A program made the translations under genes and the position numbers. The notes under the pieces are model-generated. The model did not search any database, was not told the origin of the DNA, and worked only from the letters and a program-made list of their open reading frames with translations. A stretch of DNA of 64,000 nucleotides from Uliginosibacterium sp. 31-16 (GTDB lineage: Bacteria; Pseudomonadota; Gammaproteobacteria; Burkholderiales; Rhodocyclaceae): positions 620,001 through 684,000 of the forward strand of contig NZ_JAVALZ010000001.1 of assembly GCF_030730865.1 (NCBI RefSeq), read 5' to 3'. Below are positions 1 through 5,282 of the stretch, piece by piece (within the stretch, counting starts at the first letter, position 1; every line of letters begins with the position of its first letter).

Positions 1-2057
1 GGATCAACAACAACAGGTTCGCCCGCCTGTAATGGAGCCTCGGCCGGCGCCATGCCCTTGTCGTCGAGTTGCTCCACGGAGGGGGCAACAAGCACGACGC
101 TACCGGAAGCCTGGCCTGCGCCGCCAGCACAGAATGCCCGCTGAGGCTCATCCGCAGCACGGTGGATCGGCCGGCCTTCGGCCTGACCATGCTCGATGTA
201 ATGCAGCAATGGATTGATGTGCGCAGCGGCAACATCAGGATGAAGCTCCAGATAACGACGCGTACTGAAGAGCGCCGACGGATCTCTATGCTCCTTCCAT
301 CCGGAAAGACAGTAATGCGTCGCAGGGTCTATCCCCGCAGCGCCAACGTCTGGGTTTTGCTCGGCATAGAATGCTTGATCGAACAGCGGACTCAGCCGGA
401 CACGGCGGATGGCGAACTGCCGAAGCAGCGGAATGCGTGCCAAACGACGGCTGAGAATAGCCCGCACTGGCCGGGTGCCCGCCCCCACATGGCTGGAAAT
501 GAGCCTCAGGGGCTGGGTGCAGCGCCATGAGTGCGATTGCAGCAACGCCTGAATTCGTTGCTCTTGATAGCTGATCTGCGCGTCACGCCCGGCAAGTGTC
601 TGCTCAAACCGGCCAATCTGTCCATCACGTGCAGCAAGCTCTTGATCCAGCCCCGATATCTGCGCATCGCGTTCCGCGAGCGTCTGGCTGAGACCGGCAA
701 TCTGTCCGTCGCGCGCAGCAAGCGCCTGATCCAGCCCAGAGATCTGCGCATCGCGTTCTTCGAGCGTCTGGTTGAGACCGGCAATCTGTCCGTCACGCGC
801 AGCAATCTCTTGGGAAAATCCGGCGATCTGTGCAGCAAACGCCTGCTGGAGCCCGGAAATCTGTCCGTCGCGTGCAGCAAGCTCTTGATCCAGCCCCGAT
901 ATCTGCGCATCGCGTTCCGCGAGCGTCTGGCTGAGACCGGAAATCTGTCCGTCACGTACTGCAAACTCTTGGGAAAATCCGGCGATCTGTGCGGCAAACG
1001 CCTGCTGGAGCCCGGAAATTTGTCCGTCGCGTGCAGCAAATTCTTGCTCCCGCTCCGATATCTGCGCATCGCGTTCCGCGAGCGTCTGGTTGAGGCCAGA
1101 AATCTGCCCGTCACGCACGGCAAGCGCCTGATTCAGCCCTGAGACCTGCGCATCGCGCTCAGCCAGGTTCTGGCCAAGCACAGTGATCCGCTCATTACGC
1201 TCACCTAGCCGCTGATGCCGTCCCCGAATGAGTTTAATTGCCTTGATAGCGATGTCGAATTGGTCCGCAGAGAATGCGTCTTTAGCCTCAGGTGGCTGCT
1301 TGTCATATCCGAATACATCAAAATCATGCGCATACAGCGTGCGAATCAATTCGGCGCTTCGCACCGTGATGAAATCAGAAACGTAAGGAATCAGGCTTTC
1401 GTTAGCACGACGCCCTTGAAACGGGCTGGGAATGTAGAAACCCAGCCACTCAACGAGTGCCTGGGTAAGCGTTTCTCTTTCTTCAATTTTGGCTACGCAA
1501 GAATAATTGATCAAATCCGGACGTAGCAATTTAGCCTGTGGCGTCCAGTGATGATCCCAAAAGGAAGGTGCCTCATTTTCGGCGAGATGCTCGAGAAAGC
1601 ATTCAAATGCCATCGCTACATCCGAGATCGTTCGGACCGGATGATTAAAAAACTCTTCCTGAACGTAAGGCGCAGACTGCAAGGGCTCTTGCAGCATAAG
1701 CTTGGATTGCCAGGCCGAGAATATCCGCTTGTAGGGATTGCGAACAACGGCGAATCTGAAATAGGCGTCTGACGCAAGGGCCTCAGAAAGGTCGGTCAGT
1801 TTCAAACCGGTTACATTTGGCGCAACCCGATGAGACTCGTGAACGACAAGATCGCGATCACTCTCTGCACTGTCAGTAACGTTCCGTAACTCTTCTGCAT
1901 AACCTTCCATGGCAGCAACCCACCACTTGAGGGTAGTACAGGCCACTTTGGGAGTTGCTACATAAAAAAATCGATGGCACTCAGAACGATAACTGTTCCA
2001 CTGCAAGTAATTGCCAAGGCTTTTTTTGTCTTCTTCAGACCAATCATTAATATTCAA
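1..2057 (-). CDS. Sulfotransferase / coiled-coil / NPDV-repeat protein (3' end beyond window)
   Basis: The reading frame is open from a stop at 2067-2069 to the window edge (about 685 residues visible). Residues about 30-47 read RFFYVATPKVACTTLKWW, the 5'-phosphosulfate loop of PAPS-dependent carbohydrate sulfotransferases. Residues about 101-119 read RFAVVRNPYKRIFSAWQSK, the matching 3'-phosphate-binding segment. Residues about 290-500 are a 14-residue repeat of the type GLNQxLAxRDxQIS, a strong coiled coil. The visible C-terminal part has two copies of an NPDV module (FYAEQNPDV, YLELHPDV) common in bacterial surface-glycan glycosyltransferases. No ATG precedes the PAPS loop, so I choose TTG at 2057, with AGGG 7 bases upstream; it starts 22 bp after the methyltransferase stop. 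Predicted role, by inference: sulfation of the glycan exported by the upstream ABC transporter. A glycosyltransferase domain may follow outside the window. Confidence 0.8.
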   Translation of the reverse strand, partial: MNINDWSEEDKKSLGNYLQWNSYRSECHRFFYVATPKVACTTLKWWVAAMEGYAEELRNVTDSAESDRDLVVHESHRVAPNVTGLKLTDLSEALASDAYFRFAVVRNPYKRIFSAWQSKLMLQEPLQSAPYVQEEFFNHPVRTISDVAMAFECFLEHLAENEAPSFWDHHWTPQAKLLRPDLINYSCVAKIEERETLTQALVEWLGFYIPSPFQGRRANESLIPYVSDFITVRSAELIRTLYAHDFDVFGYDKQPPEAKDAFSADQFDIAIKAIKLIRGRHQRLGERNERITVLGQNLAERDAQVSGLNQALAVRDGQISGLNQTLAERDAQISEREQEFAARDGQISGLQQAFAAQIAGFSQEFAVRDGQISGLSQTLAERDAQISGLDQELAARDGQISGLQQAFAAQIAGFSQEIAARDGQIAGLNQTLEERDAQISGLDQALAARDGQIAGLSQTLAERDAQISGLDQELAARDGQIGRFEQTLAGRDAQISYQEQRIQALLQSHSWRCTQPLRLISSHVGAGTRPVRAILSRRLARIPLLRQFAIRRVRLSPLFDQAFYAEQNPDVGAAGIDPATHYCLSGWKEHRDPSALFSTRRYLELHPDVAAAHINPLLHYIEHGQAEGRPIHRAADEPQRAFCAGGAGQASGSVVLVAPSVEQLDDKGMAPAEAPLQAGEPVVVD
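545..1190 (-). repeat. 42-bp tandem repeat encoding a 14-residue coiled-coil unit
   Basis: About fifteen in-frame copies of a 42-bp unit, diverged but clearly related, encode GLNQALAVRDGQIS-like 14-mers inside the sulfotransferase gene. Fourteen residues are exactly two heptads, so the tract should form one continuous helix. Several variants alternate AERDAQ and AARDGQ. Copy number could vary between strains by slippage without breaking the frame. Confidence 0.85.
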
Positions 2058-2079
2058 GGCGCAACCCTATTAGCAAAGA

Positions 2080-2760
2080 CTACAAGCTCAAGGACGGAGG
2101 AAACTTATTCAGTGACAGATCACCATACTCTCCTGTCGAATCGCGAAAAGAGAATCCGGATCTTTCGTCCTTCTGAATAAGAAACTGCCCATACCCCAAT
2201 GCAATGATCGGCACATTCATGGCCTCAGCAAAGTAAACGCTGAAAGGACAAACCATGGTTGGCTCAAACTTCACATCATGCTGCCAAGGCGTGGTTGTAA
2301 AGTCATCGCCACCTATAAACCCCCCCGGCTTTACTTTTCCCCATACCTTGATCAGATCAATCGTAATCCCGCGGAGAGTGTGGTCGCCATCGATATATGC
2401 AAAATCAAGAGACTTATCCGGTATCTTATCAATGACTTCTTTGGTGCGACCTCTCAAAATCCTTCGTTTATGGGCCGCGAACGCGGTCTTCACATCCATC
2501 TCACGATAGATGTCATCAAAGACCTCCGGCCCTACATTGAAAGGTTTGTTCCAATCAGGCAAGTTTGCCCAAGGATCAATCATGTAGTAGATCTCGAGAT
2601 CAGAGGCCGTCTTCAGTACATCTGCTGCGAAATCGCCTTTCCAGACTCCAATTTCGGCCATCACCCTTGTGCGCTGAATGTGAAGGAATCTATTCCACAA
2701 CTCGCTCCGCGAGGCGGATTCGCACAAAAATCCAACCACGTCGACACCATCAATCTTCAT
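2080..2760 (-). CDS. Class I SAM-dependent methyltransferase
   Basis: A 226-residue protein resembling the TylF/CmcI-like (Methyltransf_24) family. A motif I-like region lies near MAEIGVWKGDFA (SAM loop), MIDPWANLPDW follows, and FAYIDGDHTLRG with WGKVKPGGFIGGDD forms the metal/SAM-binding end of the fold. The ATG at 2760 overlaps the end of the Wzt gene by 11 bp, and the sulfotransferase starts 22 bp downstream, so it belongs to the polysaccharide export operon. The likely target is a sugar hydroxyl of the exported glycan, possibly its terminal residue; this is inference from context. The gene is visibly more A+T-rich than the rest of the window, which fits horizontally acquired O-antigen genes. 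Confidence 0.8.
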   Translation of the reverse strand: MKIDGVDVVGFLCESASRSELWNRFLHIQRTRVMAEIGVWKGDFAADVLKTASDLEIYYMIDPWANLPDWNKPFNVGPEVFDDIYREMDVKTAFAAHKRRILRGRTKEVIDKIPDKSLDFAYIDGDHTLRGITIDLIKVWGKVKPGGFIGGDDFTTTPWQHDVKFEPTMVCPFSVYFAEAMNVPIIALGYGQFLIQKDERSGFSFRDSTGEYGDLSLNKFPPSLSL

Positions 2761-4168
2761 TCGCTACACCGTCAAATTTAACAACAGGCTCTTCTGACAT
2801 CAGATCAACACATCCAAATGATTTGATCGCCTTTACCGGATTAACCCTGAACATGATGGCGTCAACAATGCGATGAGCACAGCTAGGCTCGCGGCTCGAC
2901 CAGACACCGCTTCCAGCAAAATAGGCGCCGGGCAACAAGTCCATCCGGAATGAAAAACTTGTCTTAAACTCCTGGCCTTCAAGCACATTTTCCAAATAGC
3001 TCCCTTCTTCAGGGAAGCGCTGCCCGGTAATAACGATGCCTGAAATTGACTTTATGTGAATTCCAAAATAAACGCCTGGAAAGTCCCTAAAAAACCGACC
3101 AGACACGACAAATCTGTAGTCTTCACCAGACTGCAGCACGTTAACAATCAACCCGTCTGCATTGATTATCTGGATAGAATCGATGATCGCGCCCTGCGTT
3201 GGATAAACAGTGGTTGTCTCAGGGACAAGGCCAGGGTCAAAAGCCTCGTCAGAGACCCCATGCGGCGCGAGCAAAGGTTCGGCCTGACACGAACTGGCGT
3301 CAGGGCCCTCAATCACCTCCTCCACTGCACTCGGCTCATCCCGCAGGTTGTGATCGGCCAGATCTTCAGCGAGAAGATCCCGGACCAAGCGCTCCTGCGT
3401 ATCTGCAGAAGCATAGAGCAGCTTTTGATACGCACGTATTGCGTCAGGGGCCGGTCCAAACATGAGCCGCCTCCCATGATCAAGCAACAGTGTCTTTTCA
3501 CACAGTTCAACAATACTCCCGGACGAGTGCGACACGAAAAGGATCGCAGCCCCCTCGCTCTTCAGCTCCTCGAGCCTGGCAAAACATTTCCTCTGGAACT
3601 TCTCGTCACCAACGGCCAGAGCCTCGTCAACAACAAAAATTTCAGGATCTACCATCGCTTGAACGGCAAAGGCCAATCGAACATACATCCCGCTGGAGTA
3701 TGTTTTAACCGGCCTTTCAATAAACTCGCCGATATCTGCAAACCCGGCGATGCTGTCAAAGCGTTCGTCGATTTCCGCTCGGCTCAATCCAAGAATCGCA
3801 CCGTTAAGATATACATTTTCGCACCCGGTAAATTCTGGATTGAATCCCGAGCCCAGCTCCAGCAAGGCAGCAATACGTCCGTTTGTCTGGATACTCCCGT
3901 GTGTCGAATTGAGCGTTCCGCAAATCATCTGCAGCAGCGTGGATTTTCCGCTGCCGTTTCGGCCGACAATCCCTACGGTTTCACCCTTTTTGACTTCAAA
4001 TGAAACATCCCTCAAAGCCCAGAATTCACGGCAATACTGTCTGGGCTGAAGACCGAGGCCTTTTTGCAGCCGTGGCATGACGAACTGTTTGAGTCGATCT
4101 CTCGGTTGCGCGTAGATCTGGTAGCACTTGCTGAGATTTTCGACCTTGATTGCAGTATCAGATGACAT
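2750..4168 (-). CDS. wzt: Polysaccharide ABC transporter ATP-binding protein with C-terminal substrate-binding domain
   Basis: 472 residues. Walker A GRNGSGKST lies at about 69-77, signature YSSGMYVRLAF near 150 and Walker B IFVVDEALAVGD near 170, typical of the TagH/KpsT/Wzt class. After about residue 250 an acidic linker leads to a roughly 140-residue beta-rich C-terminal domain as in Wzt_C proteins, which bind the modified non-reducing end of the O-polysaccharide before export. The start is ATG at 4168 (MSSDTAIKVENLSK), overlapping the Wzm stop by 11 bp; a longer open frame upstream has no family support. It pairs with the permease to export an undecaprenyl-linked glycan across the inner membrane. 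Confidence 0.9.
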   Translation of the reverse strand: MSSDTAIKVENLSKCYQIYAQPRDRLKQFVMPRLQKGLGLQPRQYCREFWALRDVSFEVKKGETVGIVGRNGSGKSTLLQMICGTLNSTHGSIQTNGRIAALLELGSGFNPEFTGCENVYLNGAILGLSRAEIDERFDSIAGFADIGEFIERPVKTYSSGMYVRLAFAVQAMVDPEIFVVDEALAVGDEKFQRKCFARLEELKSEGAAILFVSHSSGSIVELCEKTLLLDHGRRLMFGPAPDAIRAYQKLLYASADTQERLVRDLLAEDLADHNLRDEPSAVEEVIEGPDASSCQAEPLLAPHGVSDEAFDPGLVPETTTVYPTQGAIIDSIQIINADGLIVNVLQSGEDYRFVVSGRFFRDFPGVYFGIHIKSISGIVITGQRFPEEGSYLENVLEGQEFKTSFSFRMDLLPGAYFAGSGVWSSREPSCAHRIVDAIMFRVNPVKAIKSFGCVDLMSEEPVVKFDGVANED

Positions 4169-4976
4169 CCGCAAAACCCTTCCTTGTCTTCTGAAACCAG
4201 GCAAAGCCAAGCCATGCGGTCAAACAGCCAACGCCCCAGATAATGCAAAGCATCATCACGTCTGGCGCCTTCCCCCAGTACAGCACATCACGTGTCATCT
4301 CAATGACAGGGGTGAGCGGATTCAGGTAGAGCAGGTGACGATAGTTCTCAGGCAGCGCAGTAGCAGGATAGAAAATGGGGCTGAGGAACATGAGCACTGT
4401 CGTGACGATCCCAATGAATTGCGCGACGTCCCGCAGGAATACGCCCAGCGAGGCAAGCACCCAGCTCAAGCCGAGGATGAAGAACAGCAAAGGGGTGATC
4501 ACCAGCGGCAGATAGAGCGCGGTAGCGTGCGGAATGCCGAACAAGGCCAGATACGCTGCAAACCACACGCCAAGACTGATAAGCCCATGAAACAGGGCGG
4601 ATGCCGTGGCAACTCCGGGCAGGATCTCAAGCGGGAACACGACTTTCTTGACGTAATTCACATTGGCGAGAATCAAGCCTGGCGCGCGGTTGATGCACTC
4701 TGCAAAGAGATTGAACACCATCAGCCCCGCAAACAGCACCAGAGCGAATTCGGTTTTCGATTCGCTACCGGCGCTCCAGCGTGCTTTGAAAATTTCGCTG
4801 AACACGAATGTGTACACGGCGAGCATCAGCATCGGGTTGAAGAATGACCAGAGGACGCCCAGCATTGCGCCCTTGTAGCGCCCTAGCACTTCCCGGACAG
4901 CGAGCGCGCGAATCAGACTGCGATTGCGCCACATGCAGACAAACATCTCGCGCGGCGAGATTGAAAATTCCCTCAA
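4158..4976 (-). CDS. wzm: Polysaccharide ABC transporter permease (ABC-2 type)
   Basis: About 272 residues with six hydrophobic segments and the ABC-2 hallmark REVLGRYKGAMLGVLWSFFNP near the N-terminus. This is the transmembrane half of a Wzm/Wzt or KpsM/KpsT exporter of lipid-linked polysaccharide. The start is uncertain because no ATG is suitably placed. TTG at 4976 has GGAGGG ending 7-8 bases upstream, whereas TTG at 4982 lies too close to it. It is the first gene of the visible export operon and overlaps the ATPase gene. Confidence 0.88.
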   Translation of the reverse strand: MREFSISPREMFVCMWRNRSLIRALAVREVLGRYKGAMLGVLWSFFNPMLMLAVYTFVFSEIFKARWSAGSESKTEFALVLFAGLMVFNLFAECINRAPGLILANVNYVKKVVFPLEILPGVATASALFHGLISLGVWFAAYLALFGIPHATALYLPLVITPLLFFILGLSWVLASLGVFLRDVAQFIGIVTTVLMFLSPIFYPATALPENYRHLLYLNPLTPVIEMTRDVLYWGKAPDVMMLCIIWGVGCLTAWLGFAWFQKTRKGFADVI

Positions 4977-5282
4977 CAGCAAACCCTCCGCAATAGTCTA
5001 AAGACGCCCCAAGCTGGACCAAGGTGATACACGGGTAACGTAATCAGGAATTATCCGGGCTAAGGGCTGACGTCTCCTTGTGATGAGACAACCTGCCCGA
5101 AAGTACGGTACCCGCACAGGGGCGAATGCTTGTACCCGCATCAATCGGATCAGCATCGCTGCCATGATCGGCAGGATCATGGCTTGCACCGTCGGCGCAG
5201 CAGGTCAGGAGTTTTTTCCGCCCTTGCACGACACGAAAAAAAACCACAAAACCTCTGGAAACGTAAATTTTGGGCGCGCTGA

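What the first reader, a model, noticed from the sequence alone, without database searches (positions are those of the whole stretch)
1..4976. Possible sulfate/methyl capping and length-control module next to a Wzm/Wzt exporter
Seen: Wzm, Wzt with a long C-terminal domain, a methyltransferase and a sulfotransferase fused to a long regular coiled coil, all on one strand with overlaps or short gaps. Known: in E. coli O8/O9a, WbdD caps the O-antigen with methyl or phosphate-methyl groups, its coiled coil acts as a molecular ruler, and the Wzt C-terminal domain recognises the cap. Inference: here a PAPS-dependent sulfotransferase on a coiled-coil ruler could terminate the chain with sulfate, read by Wzt. 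I know of no described sulfate-capped ABC-exported O-antigen of this design.
Basis: partly seen in the sequence, partly recalled or inferred. Interest (0 to 1): 0.75.

Follow-up and report, generated by a model that had tools for sequence, protein, structure and literature searches.

The report
Probable sulfate-capping ruler for exported polysaccharide
A bacterial surface-sugar gene cluster carries one giant protein that seems to build the chain, measure it and cap it with sulfate, beside an exporter whose sensor domain appears matched to that cap, a cap chemistry for which we found no description.

Summary
The sulfotransferase ORF is 1793 aa: PF03567 sulfotransferase, ~223-residue heptad coil, then WbsX, GT2 and GT4 domains. 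This is the terminator-ruler-polymerase layout of K. pneumoniae O12 WbbB and O7 ORF6, with a sulfotransferase in the terminator position.

Comparative genomics supports a functional pairing. Of 34 related loci (Pseudomonas to planctomycetes), 20 have wzm and wzt with a C-terminal domain (CTD) just upstream. The CTD follows the sulfotransferase, not the glycosyltransferase tail: 48-64% identity when linked, at most 37% in 44 genomes without it. A two-part CTD signature is in 23 of 23 linked and 0 of 53 other CTDs. In other wzt loci a different sulfotransferase family (PF13469) or a methyltransferase holds the same place.

Against: two loci pair the sulfotransferase with a CTD-less Wzt, six have no exporter nearby, an AU test does not reject simple co-inheritance, the second CTD type is not exclusive to PF13469 loci, and no chemistry exists. 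The neighbouring methyltransferase has no detected homologue in the other loci, so methyl capping is unsupported. Verdict: new variant of a known kind; sulfate cap likely, unproven.

The parts
4158..4982 (-). Wzm, ABC-2 type membrane subunit (274 aa ORF)
   Evidence: PF01061 92.5 bits; 46-73% identical Wzm in the 20 loci that have a CTD-bearing wzt
2750..4210 (-). Wzt, ABC ATPase with C-terminal carbohydrate-binding domain (486 aa ORF; the true start is probably an internal ATG, by inspection)
   Evidence: PF00005 and PF14524; best PDB sequence match 8dku (named A. aeolicus WzmWzt)
2801..3208 (-). Wzt C-terminal domain (aa 335-470), proposed cap sensor, type I
   Evidence: PF14524; AF2 model pLDDT 87 matches 2r5o (Wzt C-terminal domain), 8dky (A. 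aeolicus, bound to 3-O-methyl-mannose) and 5hno/5hnp (Kdo-capped O12)
3017..3058 (-). CTD signature: H60-x-K62 (R62 in most linked CTDs) ... T70-G-Q72-R73 (domain numbering)
   Evidence: alignments A3 and A4; loose patterns Gx[HS]x[RK] and [GS]Q[RK]xP in 23/23 sulfotransferase-linked and 0/53 other CTDs
2080..2760 (-). Methyltransf_24 protein (226 aa), apparently a locus-specific accessory gene
   Evidence: PF13578 51.2 bits; no blastp homologue at E <= 1e-4 in 34 related loci
3..2057 (-). Window part (aa 1-685) of the 1793-aa sulfotransferase/coil/WbsX/GT2/GT4 protein; the rest lies outside the window (L004:1676-7057:-)
1302..1985 (-). Sulfotransferase domain, PF03567 (aa 25-252), with TPKVACT and RNPYKRIFSAW stretches
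   Evidence: Pfam; P36 K37 A39 C40 T41 K44 R111 S114 invariant in 31 aligned sequences; AF2 pLDDT 90.7; fold matches nearly all PAP(S) sulfotransferases but weak, none at E <= 0.001
537..1205 (-). Heptad coiled coil (aa 285-507), proposed ruler
   Evidence: period 3.5, 0 of 5000 shuffles as high; no proline in aa 263-515
615..1158 (-). Tandem repeats (42, 84 and 159 bp) that encode most of the coil
   Evidence: TRF; protein self-identity 0.50, 0.49 and 0.52 at lags 14, 28 and 53, the highest of 7 lags tried
504..536 (-). SHSWRCTQPLR segment followed by a basic stretch, proposed membrane-proximal end of the coil
   Evidence: similar segment after the coil in 15 of 32 family proteins by a loose pattern; membrane role inferred, not computed
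3..422 (-). Start of the FYxxxPDVxxxxxxPxxHYxxxGxxEGR repeats that lead to the WbsX and GT domains outside the window (repeat boundaries by eye)
   Evidence: sequence; the region aa 546-800 matches homologues at 27-50% identity

Best explanation
The 1793-aa protein is a polymerase-ruler-terminator in one chain. Its C-terminal WbsX, GT2 and GT4 domains extend a lipid-linked glycan at the membrane; the coil holds the sulfotransferase at a distance; when the non-reducing end is long enough to reach it, the sulfotransferase adds sulfate from PAPS and stops growth. The matching Wzt C-terminal domain binds the sulfated end and licenses export by Wzm/Wzt. Shown here: the domain order, conserved sulfotransferase motifs, the heptad pattern, the Wzt cap-sensor fold, and the association of sulfotransferase with CTD type across genomes. 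Inferred: PAPS chemistry, terminal position of the sulfate, length control, CTD binding of sulfate, and the identity of the glycan as O-antigen.
For: (1) Terminator position: sulfotransferase N-terminal to a coil with GT domains beyond it. Kelly et al. [quoted passage not shown]). (2) Position swap: on Wzts with NBDs 66-73% identical to the window's, the adjacent protein, coil-containing by a simple proline-free/composition criterion, starts with a PF13469 sulfotransferase (L095, L096, L098), a methyltransferase (L100, L101), DUF4915 (L099) or no known family (L097). (3) CTD follows the sulfotransferase: of 562 genomes in two samples, 5 have both, 2 the sulfotransferase only, 0 a CTD of 51% or more without it (Fisher). 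Contrast at like NBD identity: L053 is 68% to the window and 70% to L094 in the NBD, but 63% and 35% in the CTD. (4) CTD does not follow the GT tail: L053 has no blastp match to the window's WbsX/GT2/GT4 yet CTD 63%; L132 has GT2 and GT4 domains like the window's (50%, 34%), but the other sulfotransferase family and CTD 32%. (5) The two CTD patterns are in 23/23 linked and 0/53 other CTDs. (6) Distance between coil landmarks varies 44-356 residues in the 15 of 32 proteins with both landmarks, while sulfotransferase identity to the window's is 41-67% in the family. (7) An APS kinase, needed for PAPS, is in the genome.
Against: No chemistry, mutant or length data. Two loci pair the sulfotransferase with CTD-less Wzt (L043; G906), and 6 of 34 loci with about 7 kb or more upstream have no wzm/wzt, so the exporter pairing is not obligatory. 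The AU test does not reject one clade of the linked rows in the NBD tree (p 0.373), so co-inheritance of a wzt-sulfotransferase block is not excluded. The second CTD type is not exclusive: L097 and L099, without a recognised sulfotransferase, nest among the PF13469-linked CTDs. The signature was read from the linked CTDs, so 23/23 is largely by construction; the 0/53 is the test. In Aeromonas salmonicida a 216-aa sulfotransferase-domain gene lies between wzt and wbbB, yet the authors see no such residue in the O-antigen structure (PMC4483657). Coil lengths show no clean heptad-multiple pattern.
Confidence: 0.57

Rival explanations
1. The sulfotransferase decorates internal residues or every repeat unit; the coil is only a scaffold linking it to the polymerase, and something else ends the chain.
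For: Repeat-unit sulfation exists: for Vibrio sp. KMM 8419 an ABC-exported capsule with sulfated rhamnose is proposed (PMC11641403, passages). Six related loci have no exporter nearby.
Against: Methyltransferases, the chemistry of known terminators, hold the place next to wzt in L100 and L101; CTD type follows the sulfotransferase over differing GT tails, which internal decoration would not require.
Confidence: 0.2
2. The sulfotransferase caps the chain, but the Wzt CTD does not read sulfate: the two travel together by transfer of one block, and the CTD reads the end sugar or nothing specific.
For: AU test p 0.373 for one clade of linked rows in the NBD tree; CTD-less Wzt in L043 and G906; type II CTDs also in L097 and L099.
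Against: Pairs alike in NBD differ strongly in CTD (L053-L094: NBD 70%, CTD 35%; L053-window: NBD 68%, CTD 63%); the fold is that of CTDs solved in cap-recognising exporters.
Confidence: 0.17
3. The separate methyltransferase is the terminator (methyl cap as in E. coli O8) and sulfate is incidental.
For: A Methyltransf_24 gene lies between wzt and the sulfotransferase in the window, and other Methyltransf_24 proteins hold that place in L050 and L051.
Against: The 226-aa protein is filled by the methyltransferase match and is not fused to the coil; it has no detected homologue in the 34 loci; the slot is empty in L032-L035, L041, L052 and L057 and holds an unrelated ~225-aa protein in L036-L038, L042 and L046.
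Confidence: 0.06

Closest known systems
WbbB of K. pneumoniae O12 (Kdo terminator, coil, two GTs in one polypeptide)
   Same: N-terminal terminator, coil, C-terminal polymerase GTs, Wzt with cap-binding domain (as described in PMC11231755, passages)
   Different: Terminator is a sulfotransferase instead of a Kdo transferase; the other domains are WbsX, GT2 and GT4. No alignment to WbbB was made
ORF6 of K. pneumoniae O7 (methyltransferase-kinase, coil, two GT2 modules)
   Same: Modifying enzyme at the distal end of a coil with GT modules C-terminal (PMC11231755, part of the discussion)
   Different: Adds methyl phosphate, not sulfate; homology not tested
WbdD of E. coli O8/O9a
   Same: Modifying enzyme, coil and membrane-proximal end; cap read by the Wzt CBM (PMC3482155 and PMC11231755, passages)
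   Different: Kinase/methyltransferase chemistry and a separate polymerase, WbdA
WsaE of Geobacillus stearothermophilus
   Same: N-terminal cap enzyme plus two GT domains, next to wzm/wzt (PMC2943079, passages)
   Different: Methyl cap on an S-layer glycan; [quoted passage not shown]
Aeromonas salmonicida wbsalmo cluster
   Same: Sulfotransferase-domain gene between wzt and a WbbB homologue (PMC4483657, passages)
   Different: Separate 216-aa protein of unassigned role; authors see no such residue in the O-antigen

Membership tests
Coiled-coil terminator-ruler proteins (WbdD/WbbB type) | Chain-modifying enzyme at one end of an extended coiled coil | tested here: met
   PF03567 domain aa 25-252, heptad pattern aa 285-507; that it modifies the chain is inferred
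Coiled-coil terminator-ruler proteins (WbdD/WbbB type) | Polymerase GTs at the other end of the coil, in the same protein or recruited | tested here: met
   WbsX, GT2 and GT4 matches between aa 893 and 1743 of the same ORF; polymerase activity inferred
Coiled-coil terminator-ruler proteins (WbdD/WbbB type) | Membrane-associated amphipathic helix after the coil | tested here: inconclusive
   Basic SHSWRCTQPLR segment follows the coil; membrane binding not computed or assayed
Coiled-coil terminator-ruler proteins (WbdD/WbbB type) | Modification ends the chain and coil length sets glycan length | not testable with these tools
   Needs glycan analysis and mutants
Coiled-coil terminator-ruler proteins (WbdD/WbbB type) | Known terminator chemistry (methyl, phosphate-methyl or Kdo transfer) in the coil protein | tested here: not met
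   No kinase-domain, methyltransferase or Kdo transferase family in the 1793-aa protein at E <= 0.01; a variant, not a member by chemistry
PF03567 carbohydrate sulfotransferases | Family score above the curated cut-off | tested here: met
   75.6 bits against 22
PF03567 carbohydrate sulfotransferases | PAPS-binding motifs conserved (their role is recalled, from no call) | tested here: met
   PKxACT, R111 and S114 invariant in 31 sequences
PF03567 carbohydrate sulfotransferases | Sulfotransferase fold | tested here: inconclusive
   49 of the 50 listed PDB matches are sulfotransferases or the PAP-binding retinol dehydratase, but none at E <= 0.001 and TM at most 0.46; no PDB relative by profile at E <= 0.1
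Wzt cap-binding modules (PF14524) | Wzt_C domain and fold | tested here: met
   81 bits; 2r5o, 8dky, 5hno and 5hnp among the top matches
Wzt cap-binding modules (PF14524) | Binds the terminal modification | not testable with these tools
   Only covariation with the sulfotransferase was measured
LPS O-antigen clusters | Product ligated to lipid A core | not testable with these tools
   Two O-antigen-ligase-family (PF04932) matches over the cut-off in the genome; the glycan is unknown

The most novel reading that the evidence does not exclude
Sulfate is a widespread and undescribed chain terminator: at least two different sulfotransferase families (PF03567 and PF13469) have been plugged into the same terminator slot of coil-ruler polymerases, each with its own Wzt cap-sensor type, so that cap enzyme and sensor form a swappable cassette that spans Proteobacteria, Desulfobulbaceae and planctomycetes.
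Probability: 0.4. Interest if true: 0.82.

Novelty: new variant of a known kind. Interest (0 to 1): 0.7.

Why it matters
The caps described for this export system in the papers I saw are methyl, phosphate-methyl and Kdo. A sulfate cap would add a charged end group made from PAPS, link surface-sugar length to sulfate metabolism, and give a sequence rule (terminator family plus CTD signature) for predicting chain ends from genomes. The natural pairs of sulfotransferase and CTD types make the question of how Wzt recognises caps testable by domain exchange in laboratory strains.

Tried and rejected
Methyl capping by the neighbouring gene: rejected as a conserved feature. Heptad-multiple coil lengths as a ruler signature: the commonest class mod 7 holds 6 of 15 proteins (of 13 if the equal-length L033-L035 count once), found after the fact, so not used. 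NBD tree as proof of recombination: the drawn tree mixes types, but the AU test does not reject one clade. PDB profile search with the sulfotransferase alignment: no match. My first 'no-sulfotransferase' controls turned out to include a second sulfotransferase family, so they are reported as type II and not as sulfotransferase-free. Literature, in an open-access library without subscription papers: searches returned no paper; one search returned one, on a mammalian enzyme by its abstract; of 4 papers and 15 I looked into one each (passages) and saw only the listings of the rest; some searches gave the background papers. Prior description cannot be excluded.

Rows dropped or treated specially: L063-L065 (29-30% identity) are outside the family but stay in the 34. 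L034 (near copy of L033) was left out of A2, A3 and the trees. Among the 53 other CTDs, L073/L094 and L074/L095 are the same genes taken twice (51 distinct). L093 was left out of the trees (Wzt cut at the contig end). In the 562-genome table 'sulfotransferase' means a match of 50% identity or more; the weak matches in G165 and G272 (28%, E 4.7e-7 and 5e-4) count as absent; neither is among the listed CTD matches., and 73 and 74, are taken as the same draws because size and the handles shown agree. (25 genomes, 12 with a match, the three best the same) overlaps and is not counted. Of the 20 class II neighbourhoods fetched, out of 41 genomes with a match, L132, L146 and L151 show a Wzt whose CTD matches my queries, L139 a 412-aa Wzt-like protein whose tail matches neither, L135, L136 and L144 shorter Wzt-like proteins (301, 251 and 273 aa), and L140 and L143 no class II match among the ORFs kept by my overlap filter. 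So the type II pairing rests on L094, L095, L096, L098 and L132; L146 and L151 fit poorly (CTD-II 28% and 35%).
Full report
WHAT IS THERE. The four genes are as described, on the minus strand. The window sits at G000:C1:620001-684000 of a 3.9 Mb genome. Read past its left edge, the sulfotransferase ORF is 1793 aa: Sulfotransfer_2 aa 25-252, coil, WbsX aa 893-1103, GT2 from aa 1118 and GT4 up to aa 1743. The coil (aa 285-507) has a heptad pattern that none of 5000 shuffles reaches, lies in a proline-free stretch (aa 263-515) and is coded largely by 42-, 84- and 159-bp tandem repeats. It ends in SHSWRCTQPLR and a basic stretch. Downstream follow a GT2-GT4 protein, an epimerase, another Methyltransf_24 protein and, further on, more GT2 proteins: a polysaccharide cluster. 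An APS kinase is encoded elsewhere, so PAPS can probably be made.

RELATIVES. The sulfotransferase is rare near home: 2 of 41 genomes (relatives and own), 5 of 399 of the order and 17 of 398 of the phylum match at E <= 0.001, and beyond the window's own copy only G032 and G334 are close, at 57% identity; all other matches are 34% or less. A scan of a collection of 84,980 species gave 34 loci. In 20 of the 34, wzm and wzt with a CTD lie upstream, from about 10 bases to 2 kb from the sulfotransferase ORF; L043 has a CTD-less Wzt; 10 show no wzt (4 of them with under 5 kb of upstream DNA); L063-L065 are too distant to count as family. Carriers with the full set include Pseudomonas, Paraburkholderia, Mesorhizobium, Gallionella, Methylophaga, Desulfobulbus and a Phycisphaerae MAG. 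GT tails differ: 8 of the 34 carry WbsX, GT2 and GT4 in one ORF as the window does; others match only some of these domains or none. PKxACT, R111 and S114 are invariant in 31 sequences. The distance from the sulfotransferase to the SW segment ranges from 44 to 356 residues in the 15 of 32 proteins with both landmarks.

THE CTD FOLLOWS THE SULFOTRANSFERASE. The 20 linked Wzts have NBD 58-79% and CTD 48-64% identity to the window's. In 399 genomes of the order, 21 have a CTD match: the window's own and G334 (57%), both with the sulfotransferase, then 37% and below. In 163 genomes of a second family, 28 have a match: 55, 52 and 51% in three genomes that all carry the sulfotransferase, then 37% and below; a fourth carrier, G906, has no CTD match. 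Pooled: 5 with both, 2 sulfotransferase only (G032, G906), 0 close CTD only, 555 neither (Fisher 4.6e-11); among the 49 genomes with any CTD match, 5 against 44 without exception (5.2e-7). These p-values ignore relatedness. Wzts not linked to it, with NBD 66-73%, have tblastn CTD matches of 30-35% or none. Linked CTDs share a hairpin Gx[HS]x[RK]...GQRxP, replaced in others by forms such as RFGMMIKTxSGxELGG; both patterns occur in 23 of 23 linked and 0 of 53 other CTDs. The CTD model matches the solved Wzt C-terminal domains, among them those of the Kdo-capped O12 system and of A. aeolicus.

SWAPS IN THE TERMINATOR SLOT. I fetched nine of the other wzt loci. In seven of them the protein next to wzt has a coil-like stretch (a simple proline-free criterion) and another N-terminal domain: PF13469 sulfotransferase in L095, L096 and L098 (in L095 and L098 below, in L096 just above the curated cut-off), methyltransferase in L100 and L101, DUF4915 in L099, no family in L097. 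L094 has a PF13469 protein without such a coil, and in L093 the wzt is cut by the contig end. Matches to the L095 sulfotransferase are commoner, 41 of 398 phylum genomes at E <= 0.001, but only 3 of 20 fetched neighbourhoods show a Wzt whose CTD matches either type. The CTDs of L094, L096, L098 and L132 are 49-56% identical to that of L095 but 32-33% to the window's; L146 and L151 fit poorly, and L097 and L099 (39 and 41% to L095) nest among this second type, so it is not exclusive. In the CTD tree the 20 type I CTDs are one clade (SH-aLRT 97); the NBD tree mixes types, but an AU test does not reject one clade there (p 0.373). The plainest contrast is L053 (type I) and L094 (type II): NBD 70% identical, CTD 35%, whereas L053 and the window have NBD 68% and CTD 63%.

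INTERPRETATION. Kelly et al. 2024 (PMC11231755: abstract, first part of the discussion and passages; [quoted passage not shown] The window protein has this anatomy with a sulfotransferase in the terminator place. Sulfate termination is therefore my best reading, length control by the coil a likely corollary, and CTD recognition of the sulfated end the best account of the covariation. None of these steps was measured. Repeat-unit sulfation, or co-inheritance without recognition, remain open. In the exceptions L043 and G906 the nearby Wzt has no CTD (244 and 264 aa; for G906 it lies about 3 kb away on the opposite strand, beside an ORF that I read as Wzm without a family test), which suggests that the terminator can work without a cap sensor.

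NOVELTY. No paper in the held library has both 'WbdD' and 'sulfotransferase', and two further searches for the design returned nothing. The nearest lead is an unassigned sulfotransferase-domain gene beside wzt and wbbB in A. salmonicida (PMC4483657, passages). The architecture is known; the chemistry in that slot appears new: a new variant of a known kind.

Noticed in passing
L187 (G906) and L043: Same sulfotransferase-coil protein near a CTD-less Wzt (264 and 244 aa): exceptions to the pairing that may use length control without a cap sensor.
   Followed up: partly
L036:9256-9927, L037:9291-10001, L038:9278-9958, L042:9256-9927, L046:9211-9879, L039:9534-9920 (shortened): A conserved ~225-aa GDSH[LE]xAL protein sits between wzt and the sulfotransferase where the window has a methyltransferase; of two scanned, one has a sub-threshold GDSL match (E 0.0087) and one none.
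   Followed up: partly
L029:9376-10518 (G032): 380-aa sulfotransferase-coil protein beside genes that read by eye as cytochrome bd oxidase, with no wzm/wzt in the 20 kb.
   Followed up: no
window 615-1158: The coil is coded by 42-bp and 159-bp repeats, so slippage could change coil length.
   Followed up: partly
L002:9569-12307: 912-aa protein in the same cluster, no Pfam family at E <= 1e-4, with an internal near-duplicate segment of roughly 200 residues seen by eye.
   Followed up: no
L003:3310-6171: 954-aa WD40 plus caspase-like (Peptidase_C14) protein about 30 kb from the sulfotransferase gene.
   Followed up: no
L099:6352-9978: DUF4915 domain occupies the terminator slot of another coil-GT protein next to wzt: a candidate for a further, unknown cap chemistry.
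   Followed up: no
L097:5355-10247: 1631-aa coil-GT protein next to wzt whose N-terminal ~210 residues match no Pfam family at E <= 0.01.
   Followed up: no
L044:8128-9102 (Nitrotoga): STELLO-like glycosyltransferase gene between wzt and the sulfotransferase.
   Followed up: no
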